In this document: piece by piece, positions 25,388-32,291 of the stretch
How positions within the stretch are numbered: position 1 is the stretch's first letter
Layout of the letters: every line of letters begins with the position of its first letter
Assembly (NCBI GenBank): GCA_014730005.1
Contig: WJIY01000021.1
Location: forward strand, 1 to 32,291
Direction: 5' to 3'
Length of the DNA: 32,291 nucleotides
DNA from: Candidatus Babelota bacterium
GTDB lineage: Bacteria; Babelota; Babeliae; Babelales; UASB340
Made by a program: the position numbers and the translations under genes
Notes under the pieces: generated by a model
The model's database searches: none
The model's input: only the letters and a program-made list of their open reading frames with translations
What the model was told of the DNA's origin: nothing

Positions 25388-28300
25388 ATGATTTTTAAAA
25401 AAATATTTTATTTTTTTTCTTTATTAACTTTGTTATTAAATATAACTATTTATGAACAAACACTAAATTCACAGACTGCAAAACTTTTAAGAATTACAAA
25501 TGATACAGAATATCAAATATTATTTGAAGAAAGTGTTATTGTTCCTCCACGTAAAACTCTTTCAAGTGCACCTTTACCCGCAACAATTCCAAAAGAGCAA
25601 CCTGGAATTTCGATTCAAGGAACAGGAAAAAGAGTAGAACCTTTTTTTACAGGACAGGTTATTGATCTGTATCCGCTTTTGGGGATGGGGTGGGGTTGGT
25701 TAGATGAAGAATATTTACGAGCACAAGTAACAGTTGTTTTTCAAGCAAAAACTGAATCTGATATAAGAATTGCTTTGCATAATAAATTTTCTACTGATCC
25801 TATCTATGTAATTATTATTGGAGGTGATGGTAATACACGTTCTTCGATTTTAAAAAATGGTGTTGTAAAATCAAGTATTACAAGAGATGAAAATCCTGAT
25901 GCGATGGTAAGTATTATAAGGGGACAAGAATCGGGAGCTTACATTCCTTTTTGGATTTGTTTTGATAAAGGTTTAATTTTAGTAGGAAAAGGGTGGCCGG
26001 GAGATAATATTTTTCTTTCTTGGAAAGATCCTAAACCAAATTTATTTATAAATAAAATTGGTTTAGGGAGTGGAAGTCAACAAGTAAGATATACAAATGT
26101 TTTACTTTTGCCACCAGTTATTACTTTTCCTCCAACGGCCTCATATGATAGTATTCCGGTTAAACCTATTGAAGAAAAAAAAGAAGAAGTTCAATTAAGT
26201 TCGGATAAATTTATTCGGTATGGAAGTATTGTAAGAATCAAACATATACAAAGCGATCAAGGTTTAAAAGTTTATGTTCCAACTCCAAAAGTGATAGTTG
26301 CAGGCCAATCAGATTTATGGACTATAAAAGGTCCGCATGGTAAACCAGATTCTTATCGATACGGCGAACAAATTCGATCCGGTTCTGTAATTAGATTAGA
26401 AAATCTACATTCTAAACAAAATTTGAATTTTAAAGAAAATGTTGAGGTTGTAGGACAAGGTGGCATTGGGAATGATTATGATAATTGGATTGTCGATATT
26501 CCTGAAACAAAAAAAGGAAGTATTCTTGAAGTTGGAAAAAATTTTTATTTGATTAATGAACAAACAAAAAAGAATTTAGTTTTTTCAGGAGGATCTTTGG
26601 TTTCAGCATTAGATGTAAAAGATAATTCTGCTTTATGGAAAATCAGTTTTAATCAAGATCCCATTACAAGTATAGATTTACCTACAGGTTCGATAATTGC
26701 ATTGAAAACGAATGAAAATAAATATTTATCAGTTCAACCAAAAGCAACAGATGTTCAAGCTCCTATGCGATATGGTGACAATATTATTTTAAAGAATACT
26801 AAAGATATTATCATTGAGGGGGAATCTAAAATTATAGAACAATATTTAGCAGCTGATGGAGCACAAAGAGTTTTTGCATCACCTAAACAACAACGTTGGA
26901 AAATTTTAAATTTTACTGATCCTAGTTCGTTAGAAGAGATTAGATATGGTGATATTGTTATTTTGCAAACGACGTTTGAAAAATTTTTGGGTAAAATTGA
27001 TAAAGATCAATTAATTCCGGCATTTGAAAAACCTGTAAGAGCAATTTCCTTTGTCATAACTGATCCCCAAAATCCATTGAATCGAAATGTTGTTTTAAAA
27101 GGAGATAAGGTTGCTTTTGAATCTATTGGAAGATCATATATAAGCAATTTGATTGGAACAACTATTTCTTTGAAACAATACATTGGTACAAATGAAATTT
27201 GGGAAATTATAAAAGAAGGGGAAGAAATAAAAGGAGAAGTATCTAGAGTTTTAGTGGATCCAAAAAATTCTTCTAGCCAAAATTTTGCTTCGAGATTTAG
27301 AGTTTTACGATCTGGTGAAGAAATTGGTTTGCAGTCAATGTTTAATAATAAAAATCTTACATCCTCTAAAAAATATGGATGGGAATTGATTACACAAAAG
27401 TCAGATTTATTTTATAAAAATGATAAATCGCAAAAATTTCTTATTCAAAAAATAGGCGAAGATTATTTTTTAGTTAGCTTATCAACAAATGGTGTTATAG
27501 ATTATGAGGGTAAAACAGGGAGTTTAGGAAAACCTAATAAATATACTGCTAATACAATTTTTAAATTAGAGATTATTTCAAAACCAGATATTGAGATATT
27601 GGAGGCAACATATGGAACATCCCAGAAGGTTTATAATGTTGCAAATATTGTGCAAAGTTTAGTTGATGGATCTAAGTTAATCATTCCTGCGGGTCAAAAA
27701 AGTAAAGTTGATCTTTTTGGTGATCCTACAAGAGGTGAGGAAAAAGTATTAAATATTACATATAAAAAAATAGATCAAGATTTAACAAAAATAGCTATTA
27801 CAGATAATGAACCGTTAATGCTGGGAATTCAAGATGAATTTGCAAAAACGGGGATAGTTAATTTTTCTTCTGGAACAAATGGAGTTTATTTTTGGTTGCC
27901 ATATTCTTTTCGAGTTGCAGGGAGAGGAACTGTTTCATTTTTAACAAACGCAATTGATGATTTATACATTGCTTTTAGTGATAGTGCGGAGCCTGTTTGG
28001 GGAACAGATAAAGAATTTTATGAGATTGGGATAGGTGTAAAAAATAATTCTGAAATTGTGTTACGTAAAAAACATAAATCAAATCAACTATCTTATGCTT
28101 CCACCCCAGATGTTATTTCAAGTGATGGTAAATTTCAAAAATATTGGGTAAGTGTAAATAATGGCATTGTTCTTGTTGGGAAGGGTGAAATAGGACAAGG
28201 ATTGTTACTTGCATATAAAGATTTGGACTCTATATTAAATATTAATACTATTGGTGTTAGTAATGGTGAAAAAGCTGTTGAGTATAAAGAGTTTAATTTT

Positions 28301-29893
28301 GCACCACCAGTAGATATTGGAAATCCGCCAGATCTTTTTGAGGAATATCAAAAAAAATATCAAACTTTTTTAGAAAGTTCACGTAAGTTAATATTTTTAA
28401 CACCTTTTACATATTGGTTTTTTCATCAAGATTCAAAACAAATTATGATCAAAGATGAAGTGGGTAATCAAAAGGCTATTGCACAAACGGCTAAAAAAGG
28501 AGTGAAGGATTATCCTTTTACAATTACTATTAATGCTGCTGGTGATCCTATTCCTCAATTAGAATGGCAACCTGAAGAAACTGGATTGCGAAAGGGTTTA
28601 AAATTTGGAGGAGCAATGCTTTCTTCTGTTAGCGGAGCTGCAGGCGCTATTCCAGATCCTAGAGCACAGGCGGCTGCAGCTGCAGGAATGGCTGTAGGTG
28701 AGGTTGCACAAATAACTTCACAGATGCTGGGTGGAACAGTTGAAGGAATTCGAACTGAAGCATATGTTAGAAAAACACCAGCTGCTTATTCTGATCCTGA
28801 AATTGCAGCAAATAATCAAAGAATTCAAGCTTTAATGGCAAATATTCGCAAAGTTAATCCTCAAAATTCGGCACATTTTAAATATATGATTGATTTATAC
28901 CGTGAACTAATTTTATTAATTGTTAGTCCAGATAATGTTGATGATGTATTAAAAGATCAGATATTTAATGATTTAAGAAATTTAATAAAATATCATACAA
29001 CGCATTCACCTGAAACTTATAATTCATTAATAAATATGTTGTTAAAAGCACATAATAATAGATTTTTATTTACACTAAGAGGAGATGAAACAAAAAGAAA
29101 TTATATTTTTGCAGGTATAAATGATGTTGCAAAAACTTTGTTTCGATCCGAAAATGAGTTTGAAATAGAAGAGCTTTTAGGTGAATATTTATGGTTAAAG
29201 CAGGAGCTGCCTGAAGCTGGTAATGGTTCGATAACATTTAAAGTGAATGGAGAAAAAGATGTCTTTGTGGCATTTAGTTCGGAAGTTGGTAAAGTTCGTG
29301 ATACACAAAAAACTATACCTATGTATGAATTAATAATTGGTACCAGAAATAATACTGCAAGTATTTTTAGATTAGAGAATAAAGGTTTTGAAATTCCAGG
29401 TGCTATTATTGCTGCCAATGTTAAACCAAAAGCTGTTCTTGAATTGGGCAAATATAGAAAATTTTGGTTTAGTATAACAACGAGCAAAATTGATGGTAAA
29501 AAAAGAGCTGTTTTATCATTTGGACATGATGATATGAGAAAGGAAAATACATTGCTTGAATGGACTGATACTCAGCCTTTTGAAAATATTAAATATGTGG
29601 GTATAGGTAGTTGGGAATCATTGTTTTCAATAAAAGATATCAAAATTGGACCTCCGGTAGGACAAATTTATGAACAAGATATGTTTCCTATTTGGCAGGG
29701 TGCACGTGAAGGAGCTCCCCCTTATTCTAAATGGATTGAGCATTGGAAACAGATACAAGTACAAACAGCTAAAACTAAAACAGATGAATTAAAATCCAGT
29801 TCAATGAAACAAGAAAATCAAATAGCAACTGTTGCAAAAAATATTTTGGAAAAAATTTGGGATAATATTTTTCCAAAATATTATCAAAGTTAG
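25388..29893 (+). CDS. Giant exported mosaic protein (1501 aa) with three farnesoic-acid-methyltransferase-like modules, beta-trefoil-like modules and a DUF3395-like domain
   Basis: AGGAGG ribosome-binding site and signal peptide. Three related modules ending in KFQKYWVSVNNGIVLVGKG.../IPFWICFDKGLILVGKGWPGDNIFLSWKD.../YRKFWFSITTSK...; trefoil-like GSVIRLENLHSKQNLNF and GSIIALKTNENKYLSV; DUF3395-like ILEATYGTSQKVYNVANIVQSLVDG...LFGDPTRGEEKVLNITYK. Confidence 0.78.
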   Translation: MIFKKIFYFFSLLTLLLNITIYEQTLNSQTAKLLRITNDTEYQILFEESVIVPPRKTLSSAPLPATIPKEQPGISIQGTGKRVEPFFTGQVIDLYPLLGMGWGWLDEEYLRAQVTVVFQAKTESDIRIALHNKFSTDPIYVIIIGGDGNTRSSILKNGVVKSSITRDENPDAMVSIIRGQESGAYIPFWICFDKGLILVGKGWPGDNIFLSWKDPKPNLFINKIGLGSGSQQVRYTNVLLLPPVITFPPTASYDSIPVKPIEEKKEEVQLSSDKFIRYGSIVRIKHIQSDQGLKVYVPTPKVIVAGQSDLWTIKGPHGKPDSYRYGEQIRSGSVIRLENLHSKQNLNFKENVEVVGQGGIGNDYDNWIVDIPETKKGSILEVGKNFYLINEQTKKNLVFSGGSLVSALDVKDNSALWKISFNQDPITSIDLPTGSIIALKTNENKYLSVQPKATDVQAPMRYGDNIILKNTKDIIIEGESKIIEQYLAADGAQRVFASPKQQRWKILNFTDPSSLEEIRYGDIVILQTTFEKFLGKIDKDQLIPAFEKPVRAISFVITDPQNPLNRNVVLKGDKVAFESIGRSYISNLIGTTISLKQYIGTNEIWEIIKEGEEIKGEVSRVLVDPKNSSSQNFASRFRVLRSGEEIGLQSMFNNKNLTSSKKYGWELITQKSDLFYKNDKSQKFLIQKIGEDYFLVSLSTNGVIDYEGKTGSLGKPNKYTANTIFKLEIISKPDIEILEATYGTSQKVYNVANIVQSLVDGSKLIIPAGQKSKVDLFGDPTRGEEKVLNITYKKIDQDLTKIAITDNEPLMLGIQDEFAKTGIVNFSSGTNGVYFWLPYSFRVAGRGTVSFLTNAIDDLYIAFSDSAEPVWGTDKEFYEIGIGVKNNSEIVLRKKHKSNQLSYASTPDVISSDGKFQKYWVSVNNGIVLVGKGEIGQGLLLAYKDLDSILNINTIGVSNGEKAVEYKEFNFAPPVDIGNPPDLFEEYQKKYQTFLESSRKLIFLTPFTYWFFHQDSKQIMIKDEVGNQKAIAQTAKKGVKDYPFTITINAAGDPIPQLEWQPEETGLRKGLKFGGAMLSSVSGAAGAIPDPRAQAAAAAGMAVGEVAQITSQMLGGTVEGIRTEAYVRKTPAAYSDPEIAANNQRIQALMANIRKVNPQNSAHFKYMIDLYRELILLIVSPDNVDDVLKDQIFNDLRNLIKYHTTHSPETYNSLINMLLKAHNNRFLFTLRGDETKRNYIFAGINDVAKTLFRSENEFEIEELLGEYLWLKQELPEAGNGSITFKVNGEKDVFVAFSSEVGKVRDTQKTIPMYELIIGTRNNTASIFRLENKGFEIPGAIIAANVKPKAVLELGKYRKFWFSITTSKIDGKKRAVLSFGHDDMRKENTLLEWTDTQPFENIKYVGIGSWESLFSIKDIKIGPPVGQIYEQDMFPIWQGAREGAPPYSKWIEHWKQIQVQTAKTKTDELKSSSMKQENQIATVAKNILEKIWDNIFPKYYQS
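29840..29882. repeat. Perfect 15-nt inverted repeat inside the 3' end of the 1501-aa CDS (possible intragenic terminator for the convergent pair)
   Basis: AATATTTTGGAAAAA (29840-29854), 13-nt spacer, TTTTTCCAAAATATT (29868-29882). The downstream gene is convergent and its stop lies about 25 nt beyond the right arm. Confidence 0.6.
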
Positions 29894-30888: not shown

Positions 30889-30907
30889 TAACGCGAGTTC
30901 GATAACT
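30889..30907. repeat. Outermost imperfect inverted repeat, left copy
   Basis: TAACGCGAGTTCGATAACT; 15/19 match to the reverse complement of 31864-31882, all four differences being transitions. Confidence 0.5.
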
Positions 30908-31043: not shown

Positions 31044-31205
31044 ATGGCCACCATAGTTTACTGGTCAAACATAGTGTTCTTGCAAACAATAGAAGCGGCG
31101 GTGGATGTATCACAAGGAATATGGTGTTTGCAAATCACTCAAGGTAACTATGCATTACCCACCTATTTTACTAATCCAATGCAGGCTTGGAATAAAAAGA
31201 GATAA
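31044..31205 (+). other. Short open reading frame (53 aa), uncertain coding status or relic
   Basis: Reads MATIVYWSNIVFLQTIEAAVDVSQGIWCLQITQGNYALPTYFTNPMQAWNKKR then TAA. Below the ORF-track cutoff. Composition looks protein-like, but it lies inside the repeat-rich segment. Confidence 0.3.
31147..31162. repeat. Middle inverted repeat, left copy
   Basis: ACTATGCATTACCCAC; perfect 16-nt reverse complement of 31802-31817. Weaker similarity continues toward the cassette on both sides. Confidence 0.7.
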
Positions 31206-31244
31206 TTAGTAAAGTTTATTTTTTAAATTATTATTTTGTAGAAA

Positions 31245-31329
31245 CTACTACTCCGTTCGCCCTGCCTGCGCGTCGAAGCCTTGGCGAAGACGTGAGGGAG
31301 CCCGTCGTAGTCGGGCGAGTCGAATGGGT
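31245..31329. repeat. GC-rich long inverted repeat, left arm (85 nt)
   Basis: CTACTACTCCGTTCGCCCTGCCTGCGCGTCGAAGCC...GTCGTAGTCGGGCGAGTCGAATGGGT; identical to the reverse complement of 31659-31754 except for an 11-nt gap. Confidence 0.95.
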
Positions 31330-31361
31330 CTTGTTTAAATGAATATGGAATAAATATTAAA

Positions 31362-31751
31362 ATGCTAAATTTTTATGTGTACATTTTAAAATGTTGTGAT
31401 GGTTCTTATTATACAGGCCATACCGATAATATTGAAAAAAGACTTTCTGAACATGTTGCTGGTTCTATAAAATGTTATACAAGCAATAAGTTACCAGTAA
31501 AGTTAGTATTTATGGAAAACTTTTCATCCAGATATGAAGCATTGTGCGCCGAACGAAAAATTAAGAAATGGACTAAAAAGAAAAAAGAAATTTTAATTAC
31601 TAAAGGTTGGAAAGCAATGGAAGGAATTAATGCAAAACTAAGAAAAACATATAATAAAACCCATTCGACTCGCCCGACTTCGCTAAGGCTACGACGGGCT
31701 CCCTCACGTCTTCGCCAAGGCTTCGACGCGCAGGCAGGGCGAACGGAGTAG
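31362..31751 (+). CDS. GIY-YIG nuclease family protein with repeat-encoded C-terminal tail
   Basis: VYILKCCDGSYYTGHTDNIEKRLSEHVAG...RYEALCAERKIKKWTKKKKEILI is a classic single-domain GIY-YIG (UPF0213/YhbQ-like). The last residues (..STRPTSLRLRRAPSRLRQGFDAQAGRTE) and the stop are encoded by the right inverted-repeat arm. Confidence 0.92.
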   Translation: MLNFYVYILKCCDGSYYTGHTDNIEKRLSEHVAGSIKCYTSNKLPVKLVFMENFSSRYEALCAERKIKKWTKKKKEILITKGWKAMEGINAKLRKTYNKTHSTRPTSLRLRRAPSRLRQGFDAQAGRTE

Positions 31752-31754
31752 TAG
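31659..31754. repeat. GC-rich long inverted repeat, right arm (96 nt)
   Basis: ACCCATTCGACTCGCCCGACTTCGCTAAGGCTACGACGGGCTCCCTCACG...GGAGTAGTAG; reverse complement of 31245-31329 plus 11 nt. Confidence 0.95.
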
Positions 31755-31801
31755 GATTATTTATTTCTTTTTCCTAAGCTCTTTTCAAATTAGCAAAAGA
31801 T

Positions 31802-31817
31802 GTGGGTAATGCATAGT
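31802..31817. repeat. Middle inverted repeat, right copy
   Basis: GTGGGTAATGCATAGT; perfect reverse complement of 31147-31162. Confidence 0.7.
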
Positions 31818-31863
31818 CAAGGTAAGTGGATTTATAGATATGCAATTTATTTCATTGCAAAAT

Positions 31864-31882
31864 AATTATCGAGTTTGCGTTA
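31864..31882. repeat. Outermost imperfect inverted repeat, right copy
   Basis: AATTATCGAGTTTGCGTTA, partner of 30889-30907. Confidence 0.5.
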
Positions 31883-31892
31883 AATAAATGTT

Positions 31893-32291
31893 TTAAGTTG
31901 CAAGTTCCGCAGTAAGAATAGAATTAATTTTATTATATTTACTAATTTCAGATGTTAATCGATTTATCTGATTTTCTATTCGTAATGCTATTTTTTCTCT
32001 AATTTCTCGTTGATCAGGAGTTTGCTGATTTATTACAGTTGTACTTTGATAATTAGAAGTTATTTTTTGAAAAATTTCAGTTTTCCAAGTAGTTGGAACT
32101 GTCCAATTTTCCATACGAGTATCGATAGCACTTATCCTTTCTAGGACAGAGTTAATGATAGATTGTTTTAATGTTGGAAGTTGAGTATTTTCAATTAAAT
32201 AACTTTTTTTTCCACGCATATTTTGAGTGGTTTCAAGTAATTGCTTTTGTGTGATTTGTTCTTGTATTTGATCTTCTTGTGCCATTGGTTG
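31893..32291 (-). CDS. C-terminal part of a Gln-rich protein of unknown function (probably continues past the window end)
   Basis: The frame stays open upstream of the ORF-track ATG (..QPMAQEDQIQEQITQKQ), so the true start is probably beyond 32291. Confidence 0.55.
   Translation of the reverse strand, partial: QPMAQEDQIQEQITQKQLLETTQNMRGKKSYLIENTQLPTLKQSIINSVLERISAIDTRMENWTVPTTWKTEIFQKITSNYQSTTVINQQTPDQREIREKIALRIENQINRLTSEISKYNKINSILTAELAT

What the first reader, a model, noticed from the sequence alone, without database searches (positions are those of the whole stretch)
31245..31754. GIY-YIG nuclease gene enclosed by long GC-rich inverted repeats: candidate mobile or self-propagating cassette
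Seen directly: an 85-nt left arm and a 96-nt right arm are reverse complements with no mismatch apart from one 11-nt indel. They are strikingly GC-rich in an AT-rich window and enclose only one small GIY-YIG ORF. GIY-YIG domains are established nucleases found in homing and repair enzymes. Inference: the arms are the boundaries of a mobile or gene-convertible unit, or a REP-like family with its dedicated nuclease, conceptually like RAYT/REP but with a GIY-YIG enzyme. I cannot tell whether this has been described.
Basis: partly seen in the sequence, partly recalled or inferred. Interest (0 to 1): 0.85.

Follow-up and report, generated by a model that had tools for sequence, protein, structure and literature searches.

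The report
GIY-YIG nuclease gene between hairpin repeats
A Babeliales bacterium carries a small DNA-cutting enzyme gene between two mirror-image copies of a hairpin-forming DNA repeat; the same gene-plus-repeat pairing recurs across many bacterial phyla, which suggests the enzyme recognises and cuts that repeat as single-stranded DNA.

Summary
Arms 31245-31335 and 31653-31754 are reverse complements (91 aligned bases, 2 mismatches, one 11-nt gap), about 60% GC in a 27% GC window, and enclose one GIY-YIG ORF. The pairing is not unique. Of 80 relatives of this protein from about nine phyla, 61 are enclosed by inverted repeats, against 1 of 283 control positions. The repeats share a motif, CCGTTCG-YCC-TGAGC..GTCGA-RGG, whose stem changes by compensatory pairs while flank and loop letters stay fixed, so it probably acts as a folded single strand. 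The home genome also has a broken copy with both arms, two gene remnants, a gene-less arm pair and solo arms. The cassette sits in an older nest: a TIR element with a perfect 7-bp target duplication, inside an IS982-type MITE whose empty copies exist elsewhere. A sister GIY-YIG clade, with a Neisseria homologue, is flanked by CGTC-type REPs (dRS3), a class reported in 2013 to lack a dedicated enzyme. I read the finding as a Babeliales member of the GIY-YIG/REP ("Ssn/NTS-like") kind: a nuclease that cuts its own flanking hairpins as ssDNA. Self-propagation in the RAYT sense is not shown.

The parts
31362..31751 (+). GIY-YIG nuclease ORF, 129 aa; domain core 31371-31586; catalytic-type residues Y7, Y17-G19, R27, E64 present; C-terminal ~32 codons read through the right arm
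31245..31335 (+). left REP-like arm: contains CCGTTCGCCCTG near its outer end and GGGCGAGTCGAATGGG near its inner end; folds as a compound hairpin
31653..31754 (-). right REP-like arm, inverted copy; 2 mismatches in 91 columns plus an 11-nt gap near the tip of an inner hairpin
31147..31175 (+). left terminal repeat of the middle element, ACTATGCATTACCCAC..., perfect over 16 nt with the right end
31789..31817 (-). right terminal repeat of the middle element
31140..31146 (.). left copy of 7-bp target duplication CAAGGTA; single in empty MITEs
31818..31824 (.). right copy of 7-bp target duplication CAAGGTA
30889..30905 (+). left end of surrounding IS982-type MITE (TAACGCGAGTTCGATAA)
   Evidence: IS982 link by transposase fragment on C34
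31866..31883 (-). right end of surrounding IS982-type MITE (TTATCGAGTTTGCGTTAA)

Best explanation
It is a GIY-YIG/REP unit: a single-domain GIY-YIG nuclease gene enclosed by an inverted pair of hairpin repeats that are the nuclease's own recognition sequence. Most likely the protein binds the repeat when it is folded as single-stranded DNA (lagging strand, incoming DNA or repair intermediates) and nicks it, reading the fixed CCGTTCG flank and TGAGC..GTCGA loop. Shown: the gene-repeat pairing across phyla; the hairpin covariation; copies and remnants in the genome; within-locus arm homogenisation; the IS/MITE nest. Inferred: binding, ssDNA cutting, and that cutting causes the arm-to-arm gene conversion and the gain or loss of the gene between solo REP and REP-gene-REP forms. 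Spread in this genome probably also used the IS982-type MITE and the 7-bp-TSD element in which the cassette now sits.
For: 61 of 80 relatives have inverted repeats within 350 nt on both sides versus 1 of 283 offset controls. Motif density is 3.77/kb near the gene versus 0.13/kb beyond 600 nt, mostly in mirrored orientation on the two sides. Stem pairs: 216 of 236 paired versus a shuffle mean of 146 and maximum of 166; stems CCC/GGG, TCC/GGA, TGG/CCA, TGC/GCA, GTT/AAC with a constant loop. In Babeliales the protein clade predicts the repeat type: type-1 clade with TCCTGAG-type repeats in 10 of 13 flanks by regex, type-2 clade with GTCATCC..GGATC repeats in 5 of 5, third clade with neither in 12 of 12, no crossing. 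The type-2 repeat pattern occurs in 6 of 31 genomes, five of which hold a clear type-2 gene. The Neisseria type-2 homologue lies among 16 dRS3 repeats in 2 kb. Catalytic-type residues are invariant. Own-genome second copy, remnants and gene-less forms. Arms of one copy resemble each other more than those of the other copy, with shared copy-specific states.
Against: No activity was tested. 19 of 80 relatives show no inverted repeat at the threshold, and a type-1 protein on a Sphingomonas plasmid has no flanking motif by regex. Motif and gene do not always co-occur: G003 and G012 carry 31 and 20 motif copies without a detected type-1 gene; G015, G020 and G024 carry the gene with 0 exact CCGTTCGYCCTG copies, their flanks bearing variants. 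The home genome has only 5 exact motif copies. The window's arms are enlarged and lack the canonical TGAGC..TCGA spacing. The survey's 80 loci are weighted to Sphingomonadales.
Confidence: 0.68

Rival explanations
1. GIY-YIG 'REPtron': the nuclease actively copies or moves REP pairs, with or without its gene, as RAYT/TnpA-REP is thought to do for GTAG REPs.
For: Gene-less REP pair on C51, solo REP inside the same composite on C25, broken full copy on C34, relatives with up to 110 motif copies, often as close inverted pairs (G026). Phylogeny joins different phyla.
Against: No insertion with arms as exact ends and no target duplication at the arms was found. The demonstrable insertion has other ends. 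GIY-YIG enzymes hydrolyse DNA and are not known to rejoin strands (established knowledge).
Confidence: 0.2
2. Passenger: the IS982-type MITE and the ACTATGC element did all the moving; the GIY-YIG gene and REP arms are cargo.
For: Perfect 16-nt terminal repeats and 7-bp TSD around 31147-31817; empty MITEs elsewhere; C25 carries the same nest.
Against: The gene-REP pairing exists in dozens of loci in other phyla, selected by the protein alone with different surroundings; the C2 paralogue has other arms.
Confidence: 0.15
3. Ordinary REP or terminator hairpins beside a housekeeping UPF0213/YhbQ-like gene; the pairing is coincidental.
For: Closest solved structures are UPF0213 proteins; B. subtilis yazA sits in an operon without such repeats.
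Against: 1 of 283 control positions versus 61 of 80; clade-specific repeat type.
Confidence: 0.05

Closest known systems
Ssn family (site-specific ssDNA GIY-YIG nucleases) with NTS repeats, Neisseria meningitidis (Chenal et al., Nat Commun 2025; from memory, not in the held library)
   Same: Single-domain GIY-YIG protein; gene lies among repeats of one family; a Neisseria homologue, 31% identical to the window protein, lies among dRS3/CGTC repeats.
   Different: The window protein belongs to a separate clade with a different hairpin (CCGTTCG-YCC-TGAG..TCGA-RGG). ssDNA cleavage not tested here.
RAYT / TnpA-REP with GTAG REPs and REPINs (PMC2817692, PMC8266576, PMC3116915)
   Same: Gene flanked by inverted REP hairpins; solo and paired REPs elsewhere; a fixed tag beside a palindrome, which TnpA-REP reads as single strand.
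   Different: Enzyme is GIY-YIG, not a tyrosine HUH transposase; the tag is not GTAG.
CGTC-tagged REPs (PMC3733652)
   Same: Inverted palindromic repeats with a fixed end tag; the sister type-2 GIY-YIG clade is flanked by this class or a close relative. [quoted passage not shown]
   Different: Window arms are of another type (CCGTTCG...).
IS982 family and derived MITEs
   Same: The surrounding ~317-bp repeat ends like the region beside the IS982 fragment on C34 (NF033520, E 1.8e-16).
   Different: No transposase in the window copy; the GIY-YIG cassette is an insert in it.

Membership tests
GIY-YIG nuclease superfamily | GIY-YIG domain with catalytic Tyr, Arg and Glu | tested here: met
   Pfam PF01541 E 1.5e-18; invariant Y17, G19, R27, E64
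Ssn/NTS-like GIY-YIG units | Single-domain GIY-YIG gene beside repeats of one family, present elsewhere in the genome | tested here: met
Ssn/NTS-like GIY-YIG units | Same clade as the Neisseria protein | tested here: not met
   31% identity to the Neisseria homologue; that homologue is 55% identical to type-2 L028, and type-2 is a separate supported clade. The Neisseria row itself was not in the tree; its identity as Ssn rests on memory.
Ssn/NTS-like GIY-YIG units | Site-specific cleavage of ssDNA at the repeat | not testable with these tools
   needs purified protein
RAYT/REPtron | Y1-HUH transposase gene | tested here: not met
   enclosed ORF is GIY-YIG
RAYT/REPtron | GTAG-tagged REPs | tested here: not met
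   fixed letters are CCGTTCG and TGAGC..GTCGA
GIY-YIG homing endonuclease in intron/intein | Gene inside a self-splicing intron or intein at a conserved host site | tested here: inconclusive
   intergenic, inside a MITE; no intron model search was run
Insertion sequence | Terminal inverted repeats with target duplication | tested here: met
   for 31147-31817 (TIR 16/16, TSD CAAGGTA), not for the GC-rich arms
Insertion sequence | Own transposase | tested here: not met
   only ORF inside is the GIY-YIG gene

The most novel reading that the evidence does not exclude
GIY-YIG nucleases are the missing dedicated enzymes of whole REP super-families: the type-2 clade for CGTC REPs, the type-1 clade for the CCGTTCG-TGAG..TCGA hairpins described here. 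Each protein clade coevolves with its hairpin's fixed flank and loop and drives REP copying, loss or homogenisation through ssDNA nicking, a RAYT-like system built on an unrelated nuclease.
Probability: 0.28. Interest if true: 0.8.

Novelty: new variant of a known kind. Interest (0 to 1): 0.58.

Why it matters
REPs outside the GTAG class have largely lacked a known enzyme; a 2013 survey says so outright for CGTC REPs (PMC3733652). The pairing of GIY-YIG clades with hairpin types seen here makes that question directly testable: purify a protein, give it its own and a foreign hairpin. The covariation also predicts which letters are read (flank and loop) and which are free (stem).

Tried and rejected
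The Ssn paper was sought by DOI and by four text searches and is not held; dRS3 with GIY-YIG gave no paper. A first alignment failed because genome-search loci are not turned to the match strand; fixed. A 14-sequence alignment was too diverse for a collection scan; a closer set worked. Synteny through the right-hand neighbour gave nothing: it has no homologue in the 10 nearest genomes searched. Viral contigs hold only two weak relatives, so phage carriage does not look like the usual route. Intron homing was considered and not favoured: the gene is intergenic within a MITE. Inversion of the interior between arms, suggested by C34's left flank matching C7's right flank inverted, was left open because C34's other flank is unrelated.

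Full report
OBSERVATION. The reported arms are real. Left 31245-31335 and right 31653-31754 align as reverse complements with 2 mismatches in 91 columns and one 11-nt gap. They have 63% and 60% GC in a window of 27%. Between them lies one ORF, 31362-31751, a GIY-YIG protein (Pfam E 1.5e-18) with Y17-G19, R27 and E64 intact. The ORF does not stop before the right arm; about its last 32 codons are arm sequence.

HOST. The genome is 1.15 Mb in 58 contigs. It belongs to Candidatus Dependentiae, order Babeliales: genomes reported as of the same order carry genes that coincide in the tree with named Dependentiae records (G026/L104, G015/L115).

COPIES IN THE SAME GENOME. A second cassette with both arms lies on C34:162-666; its gene is 84% identical in protein and broken by a 10-nt deletion and stops. 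Gene remnants lie on C36 and C23, a gene-less inverted arm pair on C51, and solo arms on C25, C45, C31 and C34:2419-2463. A third, 57% identical, apparently intact gene on C2 is enclosed by different arms of the form CCGCTCATCCCGAGTG...TGTATCGAGGGATC. Within C7 and within C34 the two arms differ by 2 mismatches, while between copies they differ by 3 to 9, and several states are shared by both arms of one copy only. That is what gene conversion between arms would give.

THE NEST. Outside the arms lies a second inverted repeat, ACTATGCATTACCCAC..., perfect over 16 nt, at 31147 and 31817, bracketed by a perfect 7-bp duplication CAAGGTA. Six or more dispersed ~200-320-bp elements elsewhere in the genome match the outer flanks and join where C7 is interrupted, with the 7-bp site single. 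They are empty sites. The outer element ends in TAACGCGAGTTCGATAA; a transposase fragment on C34 beside similar ends is of the IS982 family (NF033520, E 1.8e-16). On C25 the same nest holds only a solo REP hairpin and no gene. So the demonstrable mobile boundaries are those of transposon-like ends, not the GC-rich arms; and at C25 against C7 one sees REP versus REP-gene-REP in homologous surroundings. Which came first is not known.

THE PAIRING IS GENERAL. A scan of one genome per species returned 80 best relatives: Dependentiae, Sphingomonadales, other Proteobacteria, Chloroflexota, Thermodesulfobacteriota, Nitrospirota, Planctomycetota, Campylobacterota, Dadabacteria and others. In 61 of 80 an inverted repeat joins the two 350-nt flanks; at offset positions in the same loci 1 of 283 did; mixing flanks from different loci still gave 45 of 160, because the repeat sequence is shared between phyla. 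The motif CCGYTCRYCCTGAG and variants is found in forward sense on the left in 64 loci and in reverse sense on the right in 62; density is 3.77 per kb near and 0.13 per kb far. These loci were chosen by protein similarity alone. They are not independent: Sphingomonadales are many.

THE REPEAT IS A HAIRPIN UNDER SELECTION FOR PAIRING. Among 59 distinct instances with a free stem, 216 of 236 stem positions pair, against a shuffled mean of 146 and maximum of 166 in 1000 shuffles. Stems include CCC/GGG, TCC/GGA, TGG/CCA, TGC/GCA and GTT/AAC, with constant CCGTTCG before and TGAG..TCGA in the loop. The instance regex fixed the loop and flank but left the three outer stem positions free. The shuffle keeps column make-up, not relatedness. 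The window arms are a longer, compound version: same CCGTTCGCCCTG start and GTCGAATGGG end, with extra palindromic units between.

PROTEIN CLADE PREDICTS REPEAT TYPE. In Babeliales three clades of short GIY-YIG proteins separate in a tree (90, 5 and 12 rows; supports 99/86, 100/95, 97/84). Flanks of the first carry the motif above in 10 of 13 by regex (the window's own enlarged arms and one near-match are among the three misses; the third is a pseudogene); the second is flanked by GTCATCC..GGATC repeats in 5 of 5; the third has neither in 12 of 12. The second repeat pattern occurs in 6 of 31 genomes, five of which carry a clear type-2 gene; the sixth, G024, has only 3 copies and no clear type-2 gene. 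For the first type genome-wide agreement is looser: G003 and G012 have many motif copies but no detected gene, and G015, G020 and G024 have the gene with variant repeats.

LINK TO KNOWN SYSTEMS. In named records the type-2 protein occurs in Neisseria gonorrhoeae (55% identical to L028), among 16 ATTCCC-N8-GGGAAT (dRS3) repeats in 2 kb, chance expectation 0.02. Azospirillum, Aeromonas and Shinella homologues are flanked by inverted CGTCATYCC..GGRATCCA repeats or close variants; Photobacterium has one; S. meliloti has other inverted repeats; Planktothrix a variant; R. tumorigenes none found. A 2013 survey defined CGTC REPs, identified the Neisseria ones with dRS3, and stated that they apparently lack a dedicated transposase, no RAYT being flanked by them (PMC3733652). 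From memory, Chenal et al. (Nat Commun 2025) describe the meningococcal GIY-YIG protein Ssn as an ssDNA nuclease that cuts a repeat called NTS, with thousands of homologues of varied specificity; I could not read that paper here. If that memory is right, the kind is known and the window is a Babeliales member of a sister clade with its own hairpin.

MECHANISM. Most likely: the protein reads flank and loop of the folded single strand and nicks it. Shown are the pairing, the covariation, the copies and the nest. Inferred are binding, strand preference and consequence. Nicking at two inverted hairpins would favour arm-to-arm gene conversion (arm homogenisation is seen), loss of the gene to a solo REP (C25 fits) and, less surely, spread of REP pairs. 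A role against incoming single strands in transformation is possible but untested.

VERDICT. Real, not an artefact; not unique; the best-supported reading is a known kind of unit in a new clade and host, with fresh evidence that hairpin type and protein clade go together.

Noticed in passing
window 31829-32291: The last 463 bases match the end of contig C56 at 98%; C56 breaks exactly at the MITE junction and continues the truncated ORF to 671 aa. Probably overlapping strain variants of one locus.
   Followed up: partly
L028, L039, L041, L194, L195, L199, L201: Type-2 GIY-YIG genes flanked by CGTC-type REPs, the class said in 2013 to lack a dedicated enzyme; includes a Neisseria homologue among dRS3 repeats.
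   Followed up: partly
L016 (C2:113900-115303): A second GIY-YIG paralogue enclosed by several tandem and inverted copies of a different repeat (CTCATCCCGAGTGTCCGCCGTAGC...GGATGTATCGAGGGATC).
   Followed up: partly
L196 (Planktothrix agardhii plasmid p1): Type-2 GIY-YIG gene lies between an MmeI-like type IIL restriction enzyme and DISARM drmA.
   Followed up: no
L013 950-2220 (C34): 403-aa ORF with a Fic-like HPFLDGNGR motif next to the broken cassette and an IS982 fragment.
   Followed up: no
L076-L083, L085, L086 (own genome): Family of ~200-320-bp IS982-type MITEs, about 20 copies, several with internal palindromes of their own.
   Followed up: partly
window 25388-29893: 1501-aa ORF beside the cassette, with what look like internally repetitive segments.
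   Followed up: no
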